The notes under the pieces: generated by a model
What the model was told of the DNA's origin: nothing
Seen by the model: only the letters and a program-made list of their open reading frames with translations
The model's database searches: none
Shown: one piece after another, positions 52,917-64,000 of the stretch
Layout of the letters: each line of letters opens with the position of its first letter
How positions within the stretch are numbered: position 1 is the first letter of the stretch
Program-made: the position numbers and the translations under genes
Assembly: GCF_011326735.1 (NCBI RefSeq)
Contig: NZ_JAANCN010000009.1
Location: 1 to 64,000, forward strand
Length of the DNA stretch: 64,000 nucleotides
Direction of reading: 5' to 3'
Source of the DNA: Phycicoccus endophyticus
GTDB taxonomy: Bacteria > Actinomycetota > Actinomycetes > Actinomycetales > Dermatophilaceae

Positions 52917-53675
52917 TCAGCGGCGGCCGAGGCGCGCGGCGAGCGCCTCGGCCGTGTGCCGTACCTGCACGACGAGCGTGTCCCGCAGGGTCGCGTCGAC
53001 CTCGTCCTCGGGGTAGGTGACGGCCACCGCCGCGACCGGGTAGTCGTTGGCGTCGAGCACGGCCACGGCGACCGACCCGAGCCCCGGCGTCACCAGGCCG
53101 TCCTCGACGGCGTACCCGCGTTGTCGCGCCCGCTGCAGCCACGAGCGCAGCTCGGTGGTCGAGGAGGGGCCGCGCCCGTCGCGCCGTACGAGCGCGTCCC
53201 GGTCCGGCAGGAGGGCTCGCACCTGGCGCGCCGGCAGGGCGGCGAGCATCGCCAGCCCGGTCGCCGTCAGGGGGGCCGGCAGGCGGACCCCGACGTCGGT
53301 CACGAGCAGGGGCCGGCCGGGAGCGCGCTGCTCGACGACGTAGAGCACGTCGGCGCCGTGCAGCACCGCGAGGTGCGCGTTGTGGCCGGTGACGTCGACG
53401 AGCCGGTCCATCGGCCCGCGGGCCAGCCGCTCCAGCGGCGCCTGGCGCTGGTAGGCCGACCCGAGCTCGTAGGCCGCGAGGCCGAGGCCGTAGCGCCGCT
53501 GCTCGGGCAGGTGGCGCACGTAGCCCCGGCCGGCGAGCACGCCGAGCAGGTGGTAGACGCTCGAGCGGGGCAGCCCGAGGTCACGGGCGATGGCCGCCGC
53601 CGGCACCGGCTCGCCCCGGCGGGCGATGAGGCCGAGGACGTCGAGGGCGTGCCCGGCCGCGGGGGCGTTGGCCAT
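52917..53675 (-). CDS. IclR family regulator, probable hut regulator
   Basis: A 252-aa regulator with an N-terminal winged HTH (about residues 6-60, AIARDLGLPRSSVYHLLGVL) and a C-terminal IclR ligand-binding domain (about 75-245). The ATG at 53675 has a palindrome GTCTCGCACCCGAGAC 7 bp upstream, over a predicted -10. The same palindrome lies before hutH, hutU and the allantoate-amidohydrolase-like gene, so I propose it is the autoregulated regulator of histidine degradation; the ligand might be urocanate or a later intermediate. The assignment is inferred from shared operators only. It converges with the aldo-keto reductase. Confidence 0.85.
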   Translation of the reverse strand: MANAPAAGHALDVLGLIARRGEPVPAAAIARDLGLPRSSVYHLLGVLAGRGYVRHLPEQRRYGLGLAAYELGSAYQRQAPLERLARGPMDRLVDVTGHNAHLAVLHGADVLYVVEQRAPGRPLLVTDVGVRLPAPLTATGLAMLAALPARQVRALLPDRDALVRRDGRGPSSTTELRSWLQRARQRGYAVEDGLVTPGLGSVAVAVLDANDYPVAAVAVTYPEDEVDATLRDTLVVQVRHTAEALAARLGRR

Positions 53676-53682
53676 GGCCCAA

Positions 53683-53698
53683 GTCTCGCACCCGAGAC
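53683..53698. promoter_or_regulatory. Hut-type palindrome at the iclR promoter
   Basis: GTCTCG-CACC-CGAGAC, a perfect 6-4-6 inverted repeat. Its right part on the minus strand forms the predicted -10 GAGACT (53687-53682), 6 nt before the start codon, so binding would block its own promoter. Confidence 0.75.
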
Positions 53699-53718
53699 GA
53701 CGCGCGCGGCCGCCCTGC

Positions 53719-54174
53719 TCAGGGCTCGCCCGCGCGCTCGAGGCGCTCGAGGATGCGCCGCAGCGCGGCCCGGTCGCGCTCGGGGAGCCGGGCGAAGTAC
53801 CCGTCGGCCTCGGCCCGGCGAGCGGCGTCGACCCGGGTGAGCAGGGCCTGCCCCTCCTCGGTGAGCCCGACGACCTGGGCCCGGCGGTCGGTCGGGTCGG
53901 GCGAGCGCGCGACGAGCCCGCGCTCCTCGAGCGCGTCGACGACGTCGGTGACGGACCGCGGGGCGACCCGGAGGTGCTGGGCGAGCTCGCCGAGCCGCAT
54001 CGTCCCGTGGTGGCCGACGACCCGCAGCGCGCGGGCCTGGTGCGGCGCCAGCTCGTACGGCTCGTAGGCCGCGGTGCCGCGCCGGCGCAGGGTGCGGGCG
54101 ACCCGCATCACGAGGTCGCCGAGGTCGAGCTCGGCGGCCGGGACGTCGTCGTGAGGGGGGCGGGCGTGGCGCAC
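53719..54174 (-). CDS. MarR family transcriptional regulator
   Basis: A 151-aa winged-helix regulator. The HTH is LGELAQHLRVAPRSVTDVVDAL and the wing DPTDRRAQVVGLTEEG. I used GTG 54174 because TAGCAT (54187-54182) lies 7 nt upstream as a leaderless -10; an ATG at 54213 would add 13 residues. It is divergent from the ABC exporter, and a near-perfect palindrome between them (54216-54228) sits within the exporter's promoter. It probably represses that exporter. Confidence 0.87.
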   Translation of the reverse strand: MRHARPPHDDVPAAELDLGDLVMRVARTLRRRGTAAYEPYELAPHQARALRVVGHHGTMRLGELAQHLRVAPRSVTDVVDALEERGLVARSPDPTDRRAQVVGLTEEGQALLTRVDAARRAEADGYFARLPERDRAALRRILERLERAGEP

Positions 54175-54204
54175 GCGGGGAATGCTACCCCGGGGATGGT
54201 GTGT

Positions 54205-54233
54205 TTGACTCATTGTGAGGTAACCTCATCAAT
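54205..54233 (+). promoter_or_regulatory. ABC exporter promoter with MarR operator
   Basis: TTGACT (54205-54210) and ATCAAT (54228-54233) are 17 bp apart. The spacer carries TGAGGT-A-ACCTCA (54216-54228), flanked by ATTG and CAAT so the dyad extends over about 23 bp. MarR binding here would occlude RNA polymerase. Confidence 0.6.
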
Positions 54234-54258
54234 GAACCGACCGACAGGAGGGGTGCCC

Positions 54259-56166
54259 ATGACAGCGGCCCCGACCCAGACCCCCGTTCCCGCGACCGCC
54301 CGGCCACGGGCCGGCGGCGCCGACTCCCGCCGCACCGGCGAGCCGCCGGGCCACGGTGGCGGCCGTGGCGGGCGCGGCGTCCTCACCGTCGACCCACGCG
54401 ACCGCGCCCGTCTCGAGGAGGCGCCGGTCAGCATCCGGCGCGTCCTCGCCCTCTTCGGCCCGCACCGGGCGCGGATCGCGGTCGTCGTCGCCATCATCGT
54501 CGTCACGAGCGTCGTCGGGCTCGCTCAGCCCTTCCTCGTGCGCGAGGTCGTCGACGTCGCCATCCCGCAGCAGGACGTGCGCCTGCTGATGCTCGCGGTC
54601 GGCGCGATGGTCGCCGTCGCCGCCGTGACCCAGCTGCTCGGCGTCGTCCAGACGTGGCTGTCGACCCAGGTCGGCCAGCGGGTCATGCACGGCCTGCGCA
54701 CCCGGGTGTTCGGGCACCTGCAGCGCCAGTCGCTCGGCTTCTTCACCCGCACCCGTGGGGGCGAGGTGCAGTCCCGGCTCGTCAACGACGTCGGCGGCAT
54801 GCAGGGCGTCGTCACCTCGACGGCGACGTCCATCGCCTCCAACGTCACGACCGCCGTCGCCACCGCCGTCGCGATGGTCGCCCTCTCCTGGCGGCTGTCG
54901 CTGCTCTCCCTCCTCGTCGTGCCGCCGGCCCTGTGGCTGACCCGCAAGGTCGCCCTCATGCGGCGCGAGGTGACCGCGCAGCAGCAGCGTCGGCTCGCCG
55001 ACCTCAACGCCCAGATCGAGGAGGGACTGTCGGTCTCGGGCGTCCGGCTGGCCAAGACCCTCGGGACGGCCACCCGCTCGGCCGAGCGGTTCGCGTCGAC
55101 CTCGGCCGACCTCGTCGGGCTCGAGCTGCGCTCACAGCTCGCCGGCCGGTGGCGGATGGCGACGATGCAGATCGTCTTCGCCGTCATCCCGGCGCTCGTC
55201 TACCTCGCCGCCGGCCTGCCGGCTACCTCGGGTGGGATGACCATCGGCACGCTCGTGGCCTTCACCGCCCTCCAAGGCTCGATCTTCCGCCCGCTCATGG
55301 GGCTGCTCAACGTGACCGCCCAGTGGGTCGCGTCGATGGCGCTCTTCTCCCGGGTCTTCGAGTACCTCGACCTCGTGCCGGACGTGCCGGCGCCCGAGCA
55401 TCCTGTCCCGCTGGACCCCACGCTGGTCTCCGGGCACGTGCGCGTCGACGCGGTGTCGGTGCGCTACCCGGGGGCATCCCGCGACGCCCTGCACGAGGTG
55501 ACCCTCGAGGTGCCGGCCGGCTCGACACTGGCGCTCGTGGGGCCCACCGGGTCCGGGAAGTCGACCCTCGCCGCCCTGCTCGGGCGCCTGCTCGACCCGG
55601 ACTCCGGCCGGGTGAGCATCGACGGGGTCGACGTGCGCGACCTCGACCCGGACGTGCTGGCGTCCGTCGTCGGAACGGTCTCCCAGGAGAGCTACCTCGT
55701 CCACGCGTCGGTGCGTGACAACCTCCTCCTCGCCCGCCCGGAGGCGAGCGAGGCCGAGCTGTGGCGCGCGCTGGGGGCGGCCCAGGTCGCCGACCTCGTC
55801 GCCTCGCTGCCCGAGGGGCTCGACACCCTCGTCGGGGCGCGGGGGCACCGCTTCTCCGGTGGCGAGCAGCAGCGGCTGGCGGTGGCCCGGACCATCCTGC
55901 GCGACCCGCCGGTCCTCGTCCTCGACGAGGCCACCTCGGCGCTCGACACCGCGACCGAGCGGGCCCTGCAGGCCGCGCTCGACGAGCTCGCCCGGGGCCG
56001 GACGACGGTGACCATCGCCCACCGGCTCTCCACCGTGCGGCGCGCCGACCGGATCGCGGTGCTGGACCAGGGCCGGCTCGTGGAGTCCGGCACCCACGAG
56101 GAGCTCCTCGCCCACGGCGGCCGGTACGCGGCCCTCGTCACCGCCGACGCCCCCACCCACCCCTAG
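54259..56166 (+). CDS. ABC exporter, fused membrane and ATPase domains
   Basis: A 635-aa half-transporter. A Gly/Arg-rich cytoplasmic tail of about 70 residues precedes six TM helices (about 75-365), then an ATPase domain with Walker A GPTGSGKST (near 430), SGGEQQR and LDEATSALD. AGGAGG lies 7 nt before the ATG at 54259. It is the MsbA/LmrA type, acting as a homodimer on lipids or drugs, and follows a MarR gene and operator. The last codons lie in an 18-bp tandem duplication, giving two in-frame TAG codons. Confidence 0.92.
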   Translation: MTAAPTQTPVPATARPRAGGADSRRTGEPPGHGGGRGGRGVLTVDPRDRARLEEAPVSIRRVLALFGPHRARIAVVVAIIVVTSVVGLAQPFLVREVVDVAIPQQDVRLLMLAVGAMVAVAAVTQLLGVVQTWLSTQVGQRVMHGLRTRVFGHLQRQSLGFFTRTRGGEVQSRLVNDVGGMQGVVTSTATSIASNVTTAVATAVAMVALSWRLSLLSLLVVPPALWLTRKVALMRREVTAQQQRRLADLNAQIEEGLSVSGVRLAKTLGTATRSAERFASTSADLVGLELRSQLAGRWRMATMQIVFAVIPALVYLAAGLPATSGGMTIGTLVAFTALQGSIFRPLMGLLNVTAQWVASMALFSRVFEYLDLVPDVPAPEHPVPLDPTLVSGHVRVDAVSVRYPGASRDALHEVTLEVPAGSTLALVGPTGSGKSTLAALLGRLLDPDSGRVSIDGVDVRDLDPDVLASVVGTVSQESYLVHASVRDNLLLARPEASEAELWRALGAAQVADLVASLPEGLDTLVGARGHRFSGGEQQRLAVARTILRDPPVLVLDEATSALDTATERALQAALDELARGRTTVTIAHRLSTVRRADRIAVLDQGRLVESGTHEELLAHGGRYAALVTADAPTHP

Positions 56167-56189
56167 CCCCCCACCCACCCCTAGCCCCC
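56151..56189. repeat. 18-bp tandem duplication across the exporter stop codon
   Basis: The sequence CCACCCACCCCTAGCCCC occurs twice in a row, period 18, so the TAG at 56164-56166 is followed by a second in-frame TAG at 56182-56184. Confidence 0.7.
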
Positions 56190-56210
56190 ACCCCGACCCG
56201 CCCCGTCCTC

Positions 56211-56336
56211 GAATCGACCAATAGGTCACGTCAGGTACGGGTGCGTGTGCCTGAATCGACCAATAGGTCACGTCAGGTACAGGGGCGTGTGTCCGGATTG
56301 ACCTATTGGTCACCTCAGGTACGGGTGGGGTGGTGC
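56211..56336. repeat. Three 42-bp tandem repeats upstream of hutH
   Basis: Units begin at 56211, 56253 and 56295. Copies 1 and 2 share the core GACCAATAGGTC; copy 3 has GACCTATTGGTC, its exact reverse complement, while the flank TCAGGTACGGG is kept in the same orientation. The 274-bp gap between the exporter and hutH holds these repeats, the hut operator and no credible gene. Confidence 0.85.
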
Positions 56337-56370
56337 CCAGGTGCCGACGGAGTGGTTGGGCGGACTCGTG

Positions 56371-56386
56371 GTCTCGCGGACGAGAC
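56371..56386. promoter_or_regulatory. Hut-type palindrome upstream of hutH
   Basis: GTCTCG-CGGA-CGAGAC, a perfect 6-4-6 inverted repeat. Its centre lies 62.5 bp before the ATG at 56441, where a TGCAAT -10 (56429-56434) predicts a leaderless start. Confidence 0.75.
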
Positions 56387-56440
56387 ACGGCGTCGTCGCC
56401 GGGGCTCCACCTGACGGCGCCCGCGCGCTGCAATGGACCG

Positions 56441-58012
56441 ATGACCACCCGCGCACCCGCCCGCCACGAGCACCCCCCGGTCACGGTCGGCGCCGGGCCG
56501 CTCACCGTCGAGGACGTCGTCGCCGTCGCCCGGAAGGGTGCCCGCGTTCACCTCGACGAGGGCGCCCTCGCCGAGGTCCGCCGCACCCGGGAGGTCGTGC
56601 GCTCGCTCGCCGACGACGCGAAGCCGCACTACGGCATCTCCACCGGCTTCGGGGCGCTCGCGACCCGGCACATCCCGGTCGAGCTGCGCCACCGGCTCCA
56701 GCGCAGTCTCGTCCGCAGCCATGCCGGGGGCTCGGGCCCGCAGGTCGAGCGCGAGGTCGTCCGGGCGCTGATGTTGCTGCGCGCGGCGACGCTCGCGACG
56801 GGGCGCACCGGCATCCGCGAGGAGACCCTGCGGGCGTACGTCGCGATGCTCGATGCGGGCATCACCCCGGTGGTCCACGAGTACGGCTCGCTCGGCTGCT
56901 CCGGTGACCTCGCCCCGCTGGCGCACTGCGCGCTGGCGCTCATGGGGGAGGGGGACGTGCGCGACGCCACCGGCACCTCGATGCCCGCCGCCAAGGCCCT
57001 GGCCGCCGCAGGCATCGCCCCGGTCGAGCTCGAGGAGAAGGAGGGCCTCTCCCTCGTCAACGGCACCGACGGCATGCTCGGGATGCTCTGCCTCGCCGTG
57101 CACGACCTGCGCTCCCTGCTCGTCGTCGCCGACATCGCTGCCGGGATGTCCGTCGAGGGCCTGCTCGGGAGCGACGACGTGTTCGCGGCTGACCTCCAGT
57201 CGCTACGACCCCATCCCGGTGTGGCGGCGAGCGCACAGAACATCCGGACTGTGATGGCGCACAGCCCGATTCGTGCCTCGCACCGTACCGATGCGTGCAC
57301 GCGCGTCCAGGACGCCTACTCGCTGCGCTGCGCGCCGCAGGTGGCCGGCGGCGCTCGGGACACGCTCGAGCACGCGGCCCGGGTCGCAGCCGCCGAGCTG
57401 GTTGCCGCCGTCGACAACCCGGTCGTCACGACCGACGGCAGGGTCGAGTCCAACGGCAGCTTCCACGGAGCGCCGGTGGCCTACGTCCTCGACTTCCTCG
57501 CCGTCGTCGCCGCCGACGTGGCCTCGATGTCCGAGCGACGCACCGACCGCTTCCTCGACCCCGCCCGCAGCCACGGCCTGCCGGCCTTCCTCGCCGACGA
57601 CCCGGGCGTCGACAGCGGCCACATGATCGCCCAGTACACCCAGGCGGCCGTCGTGTCGGAGATGAAGCGCCTGGCCGCCCCCGCCAGCGTCGACTCGATC
57701 CCGAGCAGCGCGATGCAGGAGGACCACGTGTCGATGGGCTGGTCGGCGGCCCGCAAGCTGCGCCGGTCGGTCGACGGGCTCTCGCGCGTCCTTGCCGTCG
57801 AGGTGCTGACGGCCGCCCGCGGCATCGCCCTCCGTGCGCCGCTCGAGCCGGCCCCGGCGACCGGAGCCGTCGTCGCGGCGCTGCGGTCGGCCGGCGCCGG
57901 CGTGCCCGGTCCGGACCGCTTCCTCGCCCCCGAGATCGACGTCGCCAACCGGCTCGTCGTCGACGGCACGGTCCGGCGGGTCGTCGAAGGGGTCACCGGG
58001 CCCCTCGCCTGA
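56441..58012 (+). CDS. hutH: Histidine ammonia-lyase
   Basis: A 523-aa lyase that removes ammonia from L-histidine to give urocanate, the first step of histidine degradation. The prosthetic MIO group forms from Cys153-Ser154-Gly155 (in EYGSLGCSGDLAPLAH); CSG in place of the common ASG is, as I recall, also found in Streptomyces. Other family marks are YGISTGFGAL and HMIAQYTQAAVVSE. The start is ATG 56441, with TGCAAT 6 nt before it as a leaderless -10. The hut palindrome lies 55-70 bp upstream. hutU lies 3.5 kb away, separated by unrelated genes. Confidence 0.95.
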   Translation: MTTRAPARHEHPPVTVGAGPLTVEDVVAVARKGARVHLDEGALAEVRRTREVVRSLADDAKPHYGISTGFGALATRHIPVELRHRLQRSLVRSHAGGSGPQVEREVVRALMLLRAATLATGRTGIREETLRAYVAMLDAGITPVVHEYGSLGCSGDLAPLAHCALALMGEGDVRDATGTSMPAAKALAAAGIAPVELEEKEGLSLVNGTDGMLGMLCLAVHDLRSLLVVADIAAGMSVEGLLGSDDVFAADLQSLRPHPGVAASAQNIRTVMAHSPIRASHRTDACTRVQDAYSLRCAPQVAGGARDTLEHAARVAAAELVAAVDNPVVTTDGRVESNGSFHGAPVAYVLDFLAVVAADVASMSERRTDRFLDPARSHGLPAFLADDPGVDSGHMIAQYTQAAVVSEMKRLAAPASVDSIPSSAMQEDHVSMGWSAARKLRRSVDGLSRVLAVEVLTAARGIALRAPLEPAPATGAVVAALRSAGAGVPGPDRFLAPEIDVANRLVVDGTVRRVVEGVTGPLA

Positions 58013-58026
58013 CTCCCCCTGCACTC

Positions 58027-58075
58027 GAACGTCTGTGTACCCGCCGCGCACCGTGCGGCGGGTACACACACGTTC
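58027..58075 (+). terminator. Terminator after hutH
   Basis: A 21-nt stem (58027-58047 with 58055-58075) with one mismatch and a 7-nt loop, starting 15 bp after the hutH stop. No U-tract. Confidence 0.8.
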
Positions 58076-58105
58076 CGGGGGAAGGTCGGCGCTCGCGTAC
58101 CGATA

Positions 58106-58119
58106 CGGTTACGTAACCG
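58106..58119. promoter_or_regulatory. Palindrome upstream of the first ArsR gene
   Basis: CGGTTACGTAACCG, a perfect 14-bp palindrome, lies 18 bp before the start codon of the first ArsR/SRPBCC pair. It is a likely autorepression site. Confidence 0.55.
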
Positions 58120-58137
58120 AGCGGGTACTTAAGGCCC

Positions 58138-58452
58138 ATGGACGCCGTTCTCCAGGCCATCGCGGACCCGAGCCGTCGCACGATGCTCGACACCCTCCGG
58201 GACCGTCCGGCGTCGGCCGGCGAGCTGGCGGAGGCCCTACCCATCGCCCGGCCGGGCGTCTCACGGCACCCGCGGGTGCTCCGGGAGGCCGGCCTCGTCG
58301 ACGTCCGGCAGGAGGCCCAGCGGCGGATCTACACCCTGCGTCCCGAGACCCCCGTCGAGGTCGACGACTGGCTCGAGGGCTACCGGGCGCTCTGGCGCAC
58401 CCGGCTGGACGCGCTGCACACCGAGATCGCACGAGGAAAGAGGCAGCCATGA
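58138..58452 (+). CDS. ArsR family winged-helix regulator
   Basis: A 104-aa regulator beginning MDAVLQAIADPSRRTMLDTL, with the HTH AGELAEALPIARPGVSRHPR; the usual recognition-helix tail 'SRHLRVL' reads SRHPRVL here, with Pro where Leu is expected. It has no metal-binding cysteines, as is typical of ArsR proteins paired with SRPBCC genes. Its stop overlaps the start of the next gene (ATGA). A 14-bp palindrome lies upstream. Confidence 0.87.
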   Translation: MDAVLQAIADPSRRTMLDTLRDRPASAGELAEALPIARPGVSRHPRVLREAGLVDVRQEAQRRIYTLRPETPVEVDDWLEGYRALWRTRLDALHTEIARGKRQP

Positions 58453-58907
58453 GCACGACGAGCACCACGGGGACGATGCACGCGCAGGACGACGAGCGCG
58501 GGCTCGTCCGCGTCGAGGACGTCTACGACACCGACGTCGAGGACCTCTGGCGGGCCTGCACCGACCCGGAGCGGCTCGCCCGGATCGACGTCTGCGAGGC
58601 GCCGCACCACCTCCTCCTCACTCAGATGCCCGGCACCGACGAGGAGACCGAGCTCGAGGCGTGGCTGACCCCGGAGGGCTCCGGGACGCGGCTCGTCGTC
58701 GAGGAGCGCGGGGTGCCGCGGGGTGCGCTGGACTTCTACGGCTCGGGGTGGCAGGTGCACCTCGAGGATCTCGGCCGGTCGCTCGCCGCCGACGGCTCGG
58801 CGCACCCCGAGGGCTGGTCCTCGGCGGAGGCGGCGCCGTCGTGGAAGCGCCGGTGGGAGGCGCTGGTGCCCGAATACGAGGCCCGCGAGGTCACCACGAC
58901 CCCCTGA
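58449..58907 (+). CDS. SRPBCC/AHSA1-like protein, apparently lacking an internal segment
   Basis: A 152-aa START-fold protein of the Aha1 C-terminal-like family. It begins like homologues (RVEDVYDTDVEDLWRACTDP), but the text passes directly from ERLARI to DVCEAPHHLLLT; relatives normally have about 30 more residues here (W..EGDLR.GG.. to GRV). The remainder (EAWLTPEGSGTRLVVEERG) fits well. The frame is intact, so an in-frame deletion of a beta-hairpin is likely and the pocket may be changed. Coupled to ArsR by a 4-bp overlap. Confidence 0.75.
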   Translation: MSTTSTTGTMHAQDDERGLVRVEDVYDTDVEDLWRACTDPERLARIDVCEAPHHLLLTQMPGTDEETELEAWLTPEGSGTRLVVEERGVPRGALDFYGSGWQVHLEDLGRSLAADGSAHPEGWSSAEAAPSWKRRWEALVPEYEAREVTTTP

Positions 58908-58940
58908 GCCGGCGCCGACGCGGGTTGCTTGCCTCCATCA

Positions 58941-58966
58941 GATGTGCAACAGTAATGTTGCACATC
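58941..58966. promoter_or_regulatory. ArsR-type operator of the second SRPBCC/ArsR pair
   Basis: GATGTGCAAC-AGTAAT-GTTGCACATC, perfect 10-bp arms around a 6-bp spacer, contains the likely -10 TAATGT (58953-58958). It lies 17 bp before the start at 58984. Confidence 0.75.
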
Positions 58967-58983
58967 GGACGAAGGGGCAACGC

Positions 58984-59430
58984 ATGGCACACGTCATCGA
59001 GAAGAGCATCGACATCGACACGAGCGCGGAAGACCTCTGGCCGCTGGTCAGCGAGCCGGGCTGGTGGATCAACGACGGCGAGTACGTCGACCACGTGCTC
59101 GACCGCCGCGATGACGGGATCGTCGTCGTCACCGATCCCGTGCACGGAGCGTTCCCGCTCGTCGTCGTCGAGGAGGAGGCGCCGCGCTACGTGGCCTTCC
59201 GCTGGCTGGCCCGCACCGACTCCCCGTCCATCGACGGGCCCGGCACCCTCACCGAGTTCCGGGTCGAGGACCGCGAGGGCGGCGTCACGCTGCGGGTGCG
59301 CGAGAGCGGGTTCGAGTCGCTCGACGAGTCGGGGGCCGATCTGCTGAAGACGGTCGCCGACAACACCGAGGGCTGGGAGACCGAGCTCGCCGTGGCCAAG
59401 CGCCACGCCGAGAGCCGTCGCGCGGCGTGA
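58984..59430 (+). CDS. SRPBCC (AHSA1-like) family protein
   Basis: A 148-aa START-fold protein of full length. It starts MAHVIEKSIDIDTSAEDLW and has the family stretch VAFRWLARTD plus a helical end (LLKTVADNTEGWETELA). GAAGGGG precedes the ATG at 58984. It overlaps the downstream ArsR gene (GTGA), so order is SRPBCC then ArsR, the reverse of the preceding pair. Ligand unknown; the domain binds hydrophobic molecules in a deep pocket. Confidence 0.87.
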   Translation: MAHVIEKSIDIDTSAEDLWPLVSEPGWWINDGEYVDHVLDRRDDGIVVVTDPVHGAFPLVVVEEEAPRYVAFRWLARTDSPSIDGPGTLTEFRVEDREGGVTLRVRESGFESLDESGADLLKTVADNTEGWETELAVAKRHAESRRAA

Positions 59431-59765
59431 GCGCACCGATGGTCGGGGCCGCCGACGCCGTCCTCTTCGCGGCCCTCGGCGACCAGACGCGGCTCGGTCT
59501 CCTGGCCGCCCTCGGGACCGGCGGGGCGGCGACGGCGACCCGGCTCGCGGACCCGTTGCCCGTCACCCGGCAGGCGGTGAGCCGGCACCTGCGCGTGCTC
59601 GAGGACGCGGGCCTCGTCGTCACGTCCAAGGCCGGCCGGGACGTGCTCTACGAGGTCGACGTCGACGTCCTGCGCGAGCGGGCCGACTGGCTGGCGTCGG
59701 TCTCCCGGGCTTGGGACCGTCGCCTTGAGGACCTCAGGCAGCGGGCCGAGCGCCGCGACCGGTGA
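59427..59765 (+). CDS. ArsR family winged-helix regulator
   Basis: A 112-aa regulator. It starts MSAPMVGAADAVLFAALGDQ and has the HTH TRLADPLPVTRQAVSRHLRVLEDAGLV, with the normal SRHLRVL recognition helix. No metal-binding CXC motif is seen. GTG 59427 overlaps the SRPBCC stop. It likely binds the 26-bp palindrome upstream of the pair and represses both genes. Confidence 0.9.
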   Translation: MSAPMVGAADAVLFAALGDQTRLGLLAALGTGGAATATRLADPLPVTRQAVSRHLRVLEDAGLVVTSKAGRDVLYEVDVDVLRERADWLASVSRAWDRRLEDLRQRAERRDR

Positions 59766-59871
59766 GTTCCGCCGCCGCCGCCGGTCGGGCGTCGAAACCC
59801 GGTGGGCCGGTTCCGGTCCGGGTGCCAGGGTGTGCGGCGACCTCACCTCGTGAGAGGACGTGCCACGACCC

Positions 59872-60079
59872 ATGGCCCTGCGCTGGTACACCCTCGTCGT
59901 CGACAGTCACGACCCTCGGCACCAGGCGCGATGGTGGGCGCGAGCGCTCGACTGGTCCGTGCTGCACGAGTCGGACGCGCAGTGCGTCGTCGTCCGTCGT
60001 GGGAGGACGACGCCTACGTGGAGCGCACGCGCTGGCAAGAGATGGGCCCAGGCCTCGTCTTCGTTCCCGTGGGCGTCGG
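59872..60079 (+). pseudogene. Truncated, frameshifted VOC/glyoxalase-family gene
   Basis: From ATG 59872 the peptide MALRWYTLVVDSHDPRHQAR is a typical start of an actinobacterial VOC (glyoxalase/bleomycin-resistance-like) protein. Near position 60000 the good frame ends, and the family text resumes in another frame as WEDDAYVERTRWQEMGPGLV then FVPVG, consistent with loss of one base. It then stops abruptly at about 60079, where the end of the opposite-strand XRE gene begins. About the second half of the usual length (roughly 120-140 aa in total) is gone. Neither frame makes a complete domain. Confidence 0.7.
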
Positions 60080-60613
60080 TCACCAGGTAGCGGGGCGGAC
60101 GAAGGCCGCCGCCGGTCGCCCCAGCCACTGGGTGAGGCGCACGACGAGGTCGATGTCGGCGAGCCGCGCCGCCTTGAGGTTCGTGAGCCGGGCCGGGCTG
60201 CAGCCGACGACCTCGGCGAGCCCGGCCCAGGTGAGGTCCCGTTCCCGGCGGGCGTCGTTCAGGGCGGCGTGCAGGGCCGCCAGGTCGAACCGGAGCCGGT
60301 GGTCCGCGTCGGTCTTCGGGAGGTCGGTGTCGCCGACATCGACGACTGCGCCGGTGAGGAAGTCCTCCGGGGCGCGGCCGAGCCAGCGCAACATGAAGAG
60401 GACGTACTGGCAGGACGTCCGGCCGGGGTCCTTGACCCGCTGGACGGCGCCGCCGCAGATCGGGTGGTCCGTCGTGCGCGCCTCGTTGAGCCCGGCCGAC
60501 TGCTGCCACAGCTCGTCGGCCAGGTCGTACCAGCCGAGGCCGCCCGCCTCCCGTCGCTCGTCGAGCGCGGCATACAGCGCCTCGCGGTCGAAGGTCGGCA
60601 GGGCGGTGTCCAT
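60080..60613 (-). CDS. Protein with two XRE-like helix-turn-helix segments
   Basis: A 177-aa protein. It seems to contain two related units: residues about 10-85 (FDREALYAALDERREAGGLG ... WYDLADELW) and 105-175 (FDLAALHAALNDARRERDLT ... WAGLAEVVGCSPARLTNLKA), each like an XRE/Cro HTH with a following 'LTQWLGRPAAAFVRPAT'-type end. The second HTH is clearer. Likely a DNA-binding regulator; target unknown. Start at ATG 60613. It abuts the decayed glyoxalase gene. Confidence 0.65.
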   Translation of the reverse strand: MDTALPTFDREALYAALDERREAGGLGWYDLADELWQQSAGLNEARTTDHPICGGAVQRVKDPGRTSCQYVLFMLRWLGRAPEDFLTGAVVDVGDTDLPKTDADHRLRFDLAALHAALNDARRERDLTWAGLAEVVGCSPARLTNLKAARLADIDLVVRLTQWLGRPAAAFVRPATW

Positions 60614-60743
60614 CCACCCCACCGTACGCGGATCCGGTGGGCAGACCCGCTGGCCGGCCTCGCTCCTTGCCCTCGTGCACCACCGGACGTCGGGCAGCCG
60701 GTGGGCGCTGACGCCGGGCGAGCCGTCTGCCGGCCGTTGTCGC

Positions 60744-61385
60744 TCAGCCGCCGGGGACGGTGCGTACCGCGCGGACGACGAGGTCGTCGTGATGGCCGGC
60801 GCCGGCACCGCCGGCCACCCACCGTGGCCGCCGCTGCGGGCCGGTGACCGACCAGCCCTCCCCGAGCGCCTGCGCGGTGACGTCCCCGGGCGCGAGCAGC
60901 GCCTCGGGGTCGAAGCCGTGCTCGAGCGCCCGCTCGCGGTCGACGTCGGCGTGGTGGACGACGAGCAGCGTGCCGCCGGGGGCGACGAGCGACGCGAGCC
61001 GCCGGACCGGCCGGGTCTCCAGGTCCAGCGCCGGGTAGAACACCGAGACGAGGTCGAAGCTGCGGGCCGGCAGGTCGGCGTCGGCGAGCCCGCCGCGCAC
61101 CCAGGTCACCTCGGCCCCGGCCGCCCCGGCGGCCGTGCGGGCCCGTTCGAGGGCCACGCCGGACGGGTCGAGGGCGGTCACGGTCCAGCCGCGGGTCGCG
61201 AGCCAGACGGCGTCGGCACCTTCCCCGCACCCGACGTCGAGGGCGCGGCCCGGGACGAGGTCGGCGACCTCGACCGTCAGAGCCTGGTTCGGGTCGCCGC
61301 TCCAGACCCGGTCCAGCTCGGCGTAGCGCGCGTCCCACACGCTCTCGTCGTCGCGCAGCTCGTAGCCGTGCTCGTGTCTCGTCAT
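60744..61385 (-). CDS. Class I SAM-dependent methyltransferase
   Basis: A 213-aa methyltransferase. Motif I is [16 protein letters not shown] (about residues 50-65), motif [12 protein letters not shown], and the catalytic strand region [11 protein letters not shown]; the C-terminus is [12 protein letters not shown]. It resembles small-molecule or tellurite/thiol methylases of the Methyltransf_25 type. ATG at 61385. Divergent from hutU, so its promoter lies in the same 157-bp region that holds the hut palindrome. The substrate is unknown. Confidence 0.85.
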
Positions 61386-61450
61386 GCCCCGAGTGTGCGG
61401 TCCCGGTCCCGCGCGGCCCATCGCCCGTTGCCGTTCCGGCAAGGCGCTGC

Positions 61451-61466
61451 GTCTCGGATGCCAGAC
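61451..61466. promoter_or_regulatory. Hut-type palindrome upstream of hutU
   Basis: GTCTCG-GATG-CCAGAC, one mismatch from the perfect dyad. With GACAGT (61509-61514) as -10, the start would be near 61521 and the palindrome centre 62.5 bp upstream. The RBS AAGGAG is at 61529-61534. Confidence 0.65.
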
Positions 61467-61542
61467 GGCGCCGCCCGGCGTCCTCTTCACGGCCGCGCCG
61501 CGCACCGCGACAGTGGGAGGACGCGACGAAGGAGACCCCGAC

Positions 61543-63198
<1,656 letters not shown>

Positions 63199-63210
63199 CC
63201 CCTGACCCAC

Positions 63211-63264
63211 CCGCCTCGAGTGCGCTGGTGGTCGCCCCGGCGACCACCAGCGCACTCGAGGCGG
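63211..63264. terminator. Hairpin between convergent hutU and YbaK genes
   Basis: A perfect 25-bp stem (63211-63235 with 63240-63264) and CCCG loop, 12 bp after the hutU stop. It shares GAGTGCG-N2-GGTGGTCGC and its complement with the hairpin at 20448-20503. Confidence 0.8.
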
Positions 63265-63269
63265 AAAAG

Positions 63270-63737
63270 TCAGCGGGGGTCGGTGACGTCCGCGAGGTCG
63301 GCGTCGAGCACGGCGACGAGCGCGTCGGCCCCGACGGTCGCGGCCACGCCCGGGGCGCCGGCGCCGATGGACACCGTGCGCCCGGTGATCGTCGCGTCCG
63401 CGACCACCGGGAGGCGCCGCAGGGCCCCGAAGGGCGTGATCGTGCCGCGCGCGTAGCCGGTGACCTCGCGGGCCACCTCGGCCGAGGGCATCGAGAGACG
63501 GTTGACCCCGAGGTGCGCGCGCAGCTTGGGCCAGGAGATCTCCCGGTCACCCGGGACGAGGACGAACAGGTGGTCGCCCTCCCCGCGCCGGACGACGAGG
63601 GTCTTCAGGACCGAGCCCGGCTCCAGGCCCCGCAGCCGGGCCGCCTCCTCGAGCGACCCGACCGGCCCGTGCGCGGAGATCTCGTACGCGATCCCCGTCT
63701 CGGCGATGGCCCGTCGGGCGCGTTCGGCTCCGTCCAC
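63270..63737 (-). CDS. YbaK/EbsC aminoacyl-tRNA deacylase family
   Basis: A 155-aa protein of the YbaK/prolyl-tRNA-editing fold. It starts VDGAERARRAIAETGIAYEI (GTG 63737, with TACCCT 6 nt upstream as a leaderless -10) and has SVLKTLVVRRGEGDHLFVLV with the catalytic Lys, and GYARGTITPFG. Relatives deacylate Cys-tRNA(Pro) or similar mischarged tRNAs. It interrupts the hut gene run and is convergent with hutU. Confidence 0.87.
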   Translation of the reverse strand: MDGAERARRAIAETGIAYEISAHGPVGSLEEAARLRGLEPGSVLKTLVVRRGEGDHLFVLVPGDREISWPKLRAHLGVNRLSMPSAEVAREVTGYARGTITPFGALRRLPVVADATITGRTVSIGAGAPGVAATVGADALVAVLDADLADVTDPR

Positions 63738-63775
63738 CGCACCAGGGTAGGACGCCCCCGACCGCTCGTCGCAGT

Positions 63776-63791
63776 GTCTGGCCGCCGAGAC
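63776..63791. promoter_or_regulatory. Hut-type palindrome upstream of the terminal gene
   Basis: GTCTGG-CCGC-CGAGAC, one mismatch from the perfect dyad. Its centre is 63.5 bp before the ATG at 63847, with TCCAAT (63834-63839) as -10, almost the same geometry as at hutH. It also lies upstream of the minus-strand YbaK gene. Confidence 0.65.
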
Positions 63792-63846
63792 AACTGCCCC
63801 GCACCGCAGCCCCCGCCGCGGGGCGCGAGTTGGTCCAATGGGTGCC

Positions 63847-64000
63847 ATGTCCACGAGGCCGGCATCCCCGGAGGCGGCGCTCGCCTTCCGCCGGATGTGG
63901 CTCGAGCTGGAGGGCGTGGGCCTGCACCCGACGACCGGCGGCTACCGCCGCTACGCCTGGACGCGCACCGACCACGACCTGCGCGAGTGGTTCGCCGGGG
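63847..64000 (+). CDS. Allantoate amidohydrolase-like (M20 family) gene, partial
   Basis: Only 51 residues are present; the gene runs off the right edge. The peptide contains FRRMWLELEGVGLHPTTGGY and then RRYAWTRTDHDLREWFAG, which matches the N-terminus of actinobacterial allantoate amidohydrolases of the HyuC/M20 family. In actinobacterial hut clusters such a gene often sits next to hutU and the deiminase gene, where it may hydrolyse an N-formyl or N-formimino glutamate intermediate; that role is inference. The hut palindrome upstream strengthens the link. TCCAAT as -10 gives a leaderless start. Confidence 0.7.
   Translation, partial: MSTRPASPEAALAFRRMWLELEGVGLHPTTGGYRRYAWTRTDHDLREWFAG

What the first reader, a model, noticed from the sequence alone, without database searches (positions are those of the whole stretch)
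53683..63791. Four copies of a 16-bp palindrome tie an IclR regulator to three dispersed hut-type genes
GTCT-N8-AGAC occurs at 53683 (before the iclR-type gene), 56371 (hutH), 61451 (hutU) and 63776 (allantoate-amidohydrolase-like gene). Two copies are perfect 6-4-6 dyads (GTCTCG/CGAGAC) and two differ by one base. With eight fixed bases about one match would be expected by chance in 64 kb; four sit exactly upstream of the expected regulon members. I noticed no fifth copy, although my scan was by eye. At the three structural genes the centre is 62.5, 62.5 and 63.5 bp before the predicted transcription start (using TGCAAT, GACAGT and TCCAAT as -10), a class-I-activator geometry; at the regulator it covers the -10. 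This predicts an IclR-type activator of histidine catabolism that represses itself. I do not know whether this regulator-motif pair has been described.
Basis: partly seen in the sequence, partly recalled or inferred. Interest (0 to 1): 0.88.

Follow-up and report, generated by a model that had tools for sequence, protein, structure and literature searches.

The report
HutR operators controlling histidine-degradation genes
The four repeated DNA signs look like binding sites for HutR, an already described switch protein for histidine breakdown in actinobacteria; the reading is well supported here, but the switch and its sign were known.

Summary
GTCT-N8-AGAC occurs four times in the window and seven times in the 3.18-Mb genome. 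The four copies stand before hutR, hutH, hutU and an M20 amidohydrolase gene (AAH), which is followed past the window edge by hutF and hutI. That consensus hits 3 of 394 genomes, each time between a HutR relative and hutH or hutU; the window's genome has no exact match to it. Of 125 loci with a HutR relative and a hut structural gene, 100 have the exact palindrome within 200 bp upstream of one; 0 of 11 hut loci without a close HutR do. The proposed activator geometry holds up: 82 of 121 sites have TNNNAT starting 42-44 bases past the palindrome, 55 of them at +43; 500 random rotations never put more than 8 at one offset. That places the palindrome near -62: class-I activation, inferred, not shown. 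The window's own hutU does not fit. New member of a known kind; low to moderate interest.

The parts
52917..53675 (-). hutR, IclR-family regulator (252 aa)
   Evidence: HTH_IclR and IclR_C over cut-off; 60 relatives at 48-74% identity in the order, hut genes in the stretch in 52 of the 59 fetched
53683..53698 (.). HutR operator 1 (GTCTCGCACCCGAGAC), centre 15.5 bp before the hutR start codon
   Evidence: distance
56371..56386 (.). HutR operator 2 (GTCTCGCGGACGAGAC), upstream of hutH, centre 62.5 bp before the ATG
56429..56434 (+). predicted -10 of hutH (TGCAAT), first base 43 bases past the operator
   Evidence: sequence; TNNNAT at this offset in 55 of 121 sites
56441..58012 (+). hutH, histidine ammonia-lyase, possibly leaderless
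   Evidence: TIGR01225 631.9 bits, cut-off 539.15
61451..61466 (.). HutR operator 3 (GTCTCGGATGCCAGAC), upstream of hutU
   Evidence: best score among the window's sites with the profile of relatives
61509..61514 (+). weak candidate -10 of hutU (GACAGT), first base 43 bases past the operator; does not fit TNNNAT
   Evidence: sequence; among the 39 sites that do not fit
61543..63198 (+). hutU, urocanate hydratase
   Evidence: TIGR01228 892.8 bits, cut-off 375
63776..63791 (.). HutR operator 4 (GTCTGGCCGCCGAGAC), upstream of AAH-hutF-hutI
63834..63839 (+). predicted -10 of AAH (TCCAAT), first base 43 bases past the operator
   Evidence: sequence; offset test
63847..64000 (+). AAH, M20-type amidohydrolase; the gene runs on to 65091 beyond the window, followed by hutF (to 66413) and hutI (66410-67648)
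   Evidence: NF006770 570.9, hutF TIGR02022 436.3 and hutI TIGR01224 348.9 bits, all over cut-off

Best explanation
The four palindromes are operators of HutR, the IclR-type regulator encoded at 52917-53675. HutR binds GTCTSG-N4-CSAGAC as a dimer or larger assembly. At hutH, hutU and AAH-hutF-hutI the operator is centred near -62, upstream of a weak -35 and a -10 of the form TNNNAT, so HutR most likely activates these promoters by contacting RNA polymerase from upstream (class I) when a pathway compound, probably histidine or urocanate, is present. At its own gene the operator lies over the likely core promoter, so HutR probably limits its own synthesis. Shown here by sequence: the sites, their rarity elsewhere, their conservation with HutR and the near-constant spacing. 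Inferred: binding, activation, ligand, self-repression, leaderless messages, and that AAH, hutF and hutI form one transcript.
For: Four of the seven genomic copies lie in this cluster. Of 140 loci with a HutR relative, 125 hold a hut structural gene; 100 of these have GTCT-N8-AGAC within 200 bp upstream of one. 0 of 11 hut loci without a close HutR do. In 25 chosen HutR genomes GTCT-N3-AT-N3-AGAC occurs 34 times, 29 at hut genes and 1 beside a HutR paralogue; the pattern read backwards occurs once (placed). TNNNAT starts at +43 in 55, +44 in 20 and +42 in 7 of 121 sites; the largest count at any offset was 5 in 500 shuffles and 8 in 500 rotations. Sites before hutU and AAH show it in 15 of 17, or 11 of 13 when the four that lie between diverging hutR and hutU are set aside. 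A start codon follows 6-7 bases after the -10 in 52 of the 55. The published C. resistens consensus hits 3 of 394 genomes, all three between a HutR relative (51-53% identity) and hutH or hutU.
Against: No binding or expression data. The window's hutU lacks a TNNNAT -10, and 39 of 121 sites do not show it at +42 to +44. The window's genome has no exact match to the published C. resistens consensus; three of its four sites lack the central AT that relatives keep (A in 36 and T in 35 of 38). 22 of the 125 loci have only a variant (such as GTCC-N8-GGAC) and 3 have neither; the variant class is loose, since 2 of 11 control loci also show one. Covariation of recognition-helix residue and fourth operator base is strong in raw counts but not significant once relatedness is counted. 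One control locus has a near-match before hutU (L200).
Confidence: 0.86

Rival explanations
1. The sites are HutR operators, but HutR is a repressor of all targets, as many IclR proteins are.
For: At hutR the site is 15.5 bp before the start codon, a repressor-like place; the IclR family contains repressors, activators and dual regulators.
Against: At the structural genes TNNNAT starts 42-44 bases past the site in 82 of 121 cases, so the site is off the core promoter; conserved bases in the -35 region are few, which suits a promoter that needs help.
Confidence: 0.12
2. Four chance matches in a GC-rich window.
For: Window shuffles average 0.90 and one of 100 reached four.
Against: Rarity in the whole genome, the same site at the same genes in 100 of 125 loci, 0 of 11 in loci without a close HutR.
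Confidence: 0.005
3. Another regulator with the same palindrome, not the IclR protein encoded nearby, binds the sites.
For: No binding data; hutR and hutH diverge within 400 bp in only 69 of 120 loci.
Against: The exact site goes with HutR; the published consensus for HutR of C. resistens is the same kind of palindrome and its exact form occurs only beside HutR relatives in 394 genomes.
Confidence: 0.03

Closest known systems
HutR of Corynebacterium resistens DSM 45100 (Schroder et al. 2012, known to me through its citation in PMC8222616; the 2012 paper itself not seen)
   Same: IclR family, hut genes, 16-bp palindrome GTCTGWWATWCCAGAC with the same GTCT/AGAC arms and an inner G or C
   Different: Three of the four operators here have a GC-only or AC core instead of AT; the hut genes are dispersed; the pathway has HutF and an M20 enzyme, whereas C. 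resistens has HutG (PMC3350403, passages)
IclR-family group 1 motifs (PMC8222616, passages and section 14)
   Same: Palindromes of this general type; regulators usually control themselves and one or two adjacent operons
   Different: Section 14 gives site positions relative to gene starts pooled over the family; an operator-to-(-10) register for HutR is not in the parts I read
HutC (GntR family) of Pseudomonas aeruginosa
   Same: Controls hut genes
   Different: Different protein family and a repressor (titles and abstract starts of PMC12772324 and PMC12977541 in the listing)

Membership tests
HutR (IclR-type hut regulator) | IclR HTH and IclR C-terminal domains | tested here: met
   PF09339 49.1 bits, PF01614 88.3 bits, both over cut-off; none of the 8 NCBIfam families listed for it reaches its cut-off
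HutR (IclR-type hut regulator) | Encoded with hut genes | tested here: met
   hutR start 2.8 kb from the hutH start in the window; a hut structural gene in the fetched stretch in 125 of 140 loci
HutR (IclR-type hut regulator) | Operator of the GTCTG-N6-CAGAC kind upstream of hut genes | tested here: met
   Four sites share GTCT/AGAC and mostly the inner S; they do not match the exact published consensus. Exact consensus sites in 3 of 394 genomes all lie at HutR/hut loci
HutR (IclR-type hut regulator) | Orthology to the C. resistens protein | not tested
   The C. resistens sequence was not obtained; no Corynebacterium is among the best 80 loci kept (a capped list)
HutR (IclR-type hut regulator) | Purified protein binds the motif | not testable with these tools
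   needs a gel shift
Class-I activator promoter | Operator centred near -62, off the core promoter | tested here: met
   Met for predicted starts at hutH and AAH and at 82 of 121 sites; the window's hutU does not fit; no mapped starts
Class-I activator promoter | Regulator-dependent activation | not testable with these tools
   needs a deletion and expression data

The most novel reading that the evidence does not exclude
HutR defines an actinobacterial activator regulon with one nearly rigid promoter plan: operator, 41-43 bases, -10 TNNNAT, 6-7 bases, start codon of a leaderless message, present at hutH and, apparently by separate events, at hutU and AAH-hutF-hutI; a recognition-helix residue (H42 here) reads the fourth operator base; and the M20 enzyme of the regulon is the missing N-formylglutamate deformylase.
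Probability: 0.45. Interest if true: 0.42.

Novelty: new member of a known kind. Interest (0 to 1): 0.3.

Why it matters
It extends a regulator described in corynebacteria to a broad set of actinobacteria with a testable promoter geometry. It also ties an enzyme usually named allantoate amidohydrolase to histidine breakdown: it stands directly before hutF in 39 of 42 loci that have both, and in the window's genome no PF05013 N-formylglutamate amidohydrolase was found and no allantoinase above cut-off.

Tried and rejected
A fifth operator at C21:68512: inside a coding frame. A possible operator before an allantoinase-like gene (C12:270358): the gene scores as dihydroorotase and follows aspartate carbamoyltransferase, and the bases flanking the 14-mer do not complete the palindrome. 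A near-perfect site in genome G060 (C10) lies inside a long coding frame, with no hut gene found in the 8-kb stretch. Library searches on HutR, on IclR and histidine utilisation with Streptomyces, on the M20 enzyme with HutF and on Streptomyces griseus histidase: of the listings I opened only PMC8222616 and PMC3350403, and only passages plus one section. The Schroder 2012 paper is not held. One search translated hutH one base out of frame and was discarded; hutH was afterwards read from 56441.

Rows left out before counts. Of 60 relatives at E at or below 2e-57, 59 were fetched; G093 was not (it resembles G049), nor was the truncated match in G090, nor the weaker IclR matches. Four f7 loci with a HutR of 35-42% identity (L205-L208) were looked at: three show GTCCG-type sites at hutU or hutI, one shows none; they are in no count. 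L213 (a 3.2-kb contig) was not counted as a control. The 25 genomes were picked by me from HutR genomes, mostly ones already seen to have a site, so that count speaks for where else the motif occurs, not for how often it is present; one of the 25 (G064) had none. The 80 loci are the best of 581, a capped list. In one search the most palindromic candidate was taken per locus, 124 loci, two of them without a readable residue.

Full report
Observation. GTCT-N8-AGAC occurs at 53683, 56371, 61451 and 63776 and nowhere else in the window. The whole genome of 3,177,191 bases holds seven; the other three lie in an NCS1-type permease frame, by the start of rho and in a histidine-kinase frame. Dinucleotide shuffles of the window average 0.90 copies and 1 of 100 reached four, so the window alone gives modest surprise; the genome-wide count makes the clustering much stronger.

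Genes. The regulator is an IclR-family protein. hutH, hutU and the M20 amidohydrolase are confirmed, and past the window edge the last is followed at once by hutF and hutI. So the four sites stand before the regulator and before each of the three places where hut genes start.

What is known. PMC8222616 (passages and section 14 read) lists HutR of C. resistens with GTCTGWWATWCCAGAC, citing Schroder 2012, which I could not read. PMC3350403 (passages) says that the hut clusters compared in ten corynebacterial species all contain hutR of the IclR family. That HutR activates hut genes in C. resistens is something I only recall. I scanned the published consensus over 394 genomes of the class: three hits, each between a HutR relative of 51-53% identity and hutH or hutU. 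The window's own sites do not match that consensus exactly, but share its arms. I file regulator and motif as the HutR kind.

Conservation. Of 149 genomes of the order, 83 have a match to the regulator at E at or below 1e-20; 60 relatives are close (E at or below 2e-57, 48-74% identity), and 59 of these plus the window's locus were examined. Another 80 named loci, the best of a capped genome scan (Phycicoccus, Streptomyces, Nocardioides, Solirubrobacter and others), were added. Of these 140 loci 15 had no hut structural gene in the stretch. Of the other 125, 100 have the exact palindrome within 200 bp upstream of a hut structural gene, 22 only a variant, 3 neither. As control, 11 hut loci of 10 genomes whose best regulator match is at most 33% identical or absent: none has the exact palindrome at a hut gene, but 2 have a variant by the same rule, and one more has a one-mismatch candidate before hutU (L200). 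So the exact form carries the evidence and the variant class is partly noise. In 25 chosen HutR genomes, the stricter form with central AT occurs 34 times: 29 at hut genes, 1 beside a HutR paralogue, 4 elsewhere; read backwards it occurs once (with 33, 45, 64).

Geometry. In the 38 sites of the first set, lined up on the palindrome without gaps, T stands at +43 in 26, A at +47 in 24, T at +48 in 28, and C and T at +19 and +20 in 27 and 29. Over both sets (121 sites in 100 loci), TNNNAT starts at +43 in 55, at +44 in 20 and at +42 in 7; the highest count at any one offset was 8 in 500 random rotations and 5 in 500 shuffles of the same sequences. Sites before hutU and AAH agree in 15 of 17; four of these lie between diverging hutR and hutU and could descend from a hutH arrangement, and without them it is 11 of 13. 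An ATG or GTG follows 6 or 7 bases after the -10 in 52 of the 55, so many of these messages may be leaderless. This puts the palindrome centre near -62. Of the 39 sites that do not fit, the window's own hutU is one; a good part of the others belong to streptomycete-type loci, several with two tandem sites.

Mechanism. An operator at a near-constant -62, away from the core promoter, with little -35 conservation, is what a class-I activator needs; this step is inference. At hutR the operator centre is 15.5 bp before the start codon. In 69 of 120 loci hutR and hutH diverge within 400 bp, and one operator could then raise hutH and lower hutR.

Protein and site. The residue after the conserved Tyr of the recognition helix (His 42 here) tracks the fourth operator base: with His, 95 T:A, 1 C:G and 5 mixed; with another residue, 6 T:A, 12 C:G and 3 mixed (Fisher p 4e-11 on the unmixed cells). 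On a tree built without the HTH, 3 to 4 of 4 to 5 independent pairs agree and almost none disagree, but the sign test does not reach 0.05, and some C:G sites may be chance. It is a lead, not proof.

The M20 gene. AAH stands directly upstream of hutF in 39 of 42 loci with both; 10 loci have hutF without a detected AAH and 1 has AAH without hutF. In this genome PF05013 gives no match, and the best allantoinase match is a dihydroorotase. I did not search for an arginase-family HutG. A role as N-formylglutamate deformylase is my inference.

Verdict. Because regulator and motif were in print, the finding is a new member of a known kind; the near-rigid promoter plan and the M20 gene's place in the regulon are the useful additions.

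Noticed in passing
window 56214-56232 and 56256-56274, with a similar, partly inverted element near 56296: Interspersed repeat TCGACCAATAGGTCACGTC just upstream of the hutH operator; 28 exact copies in the genome (16 forward, 12 reverse), often in rows about 42, 52 or 62 bp apart, also before pyrC; the pattern read backwards has none.
   Followed up: partly
window 63847 to 65091 (beyond the window edge): The M20 gene named allantoate amidohydrolase is directly upstream of hutF in 39 of 42 loci that have both; no PF05013 match in the genome and the best allantoinase match is a dihydroorotase. It may be the N-formylglutamate deformylase of this pathway.
   Followed up: partly
L212 3630-3645 and neighbours (genome G135): A HutR paralogue (41% identity) has the same palindrome upstream, between it and a diverging histidinol dehydrogenase gene with a permease; a HutD-domain gene lies downstream. 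It may control histidinol use.
   Followed up: partly
G000:C14:93790-93805 (L010 1991-2006): One of the three other exact palindromes of the genome lies inside the 5' part of an NCS1-type permease frame; a permease of the same Pfam family is in the G135 histidinol cluster. Probably chance, not excluded as a regulon member.
   Followed up: no
L140, L142, L152, L155, L158, L161, L170, L183 (Streptomyces and Streptacidiphilus loci): Two palindromes in tandem before hutH, about 21-22 or 32 bp apart, which would suit HutR tetramers.
   Followed up: no
first bases after the palindrome in the 38 sites of the first set: An asymmetric extension (A at +1 in 27 of 38, A at +4 in 24 of 38), possibly a third half-site.
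   Followed up: no
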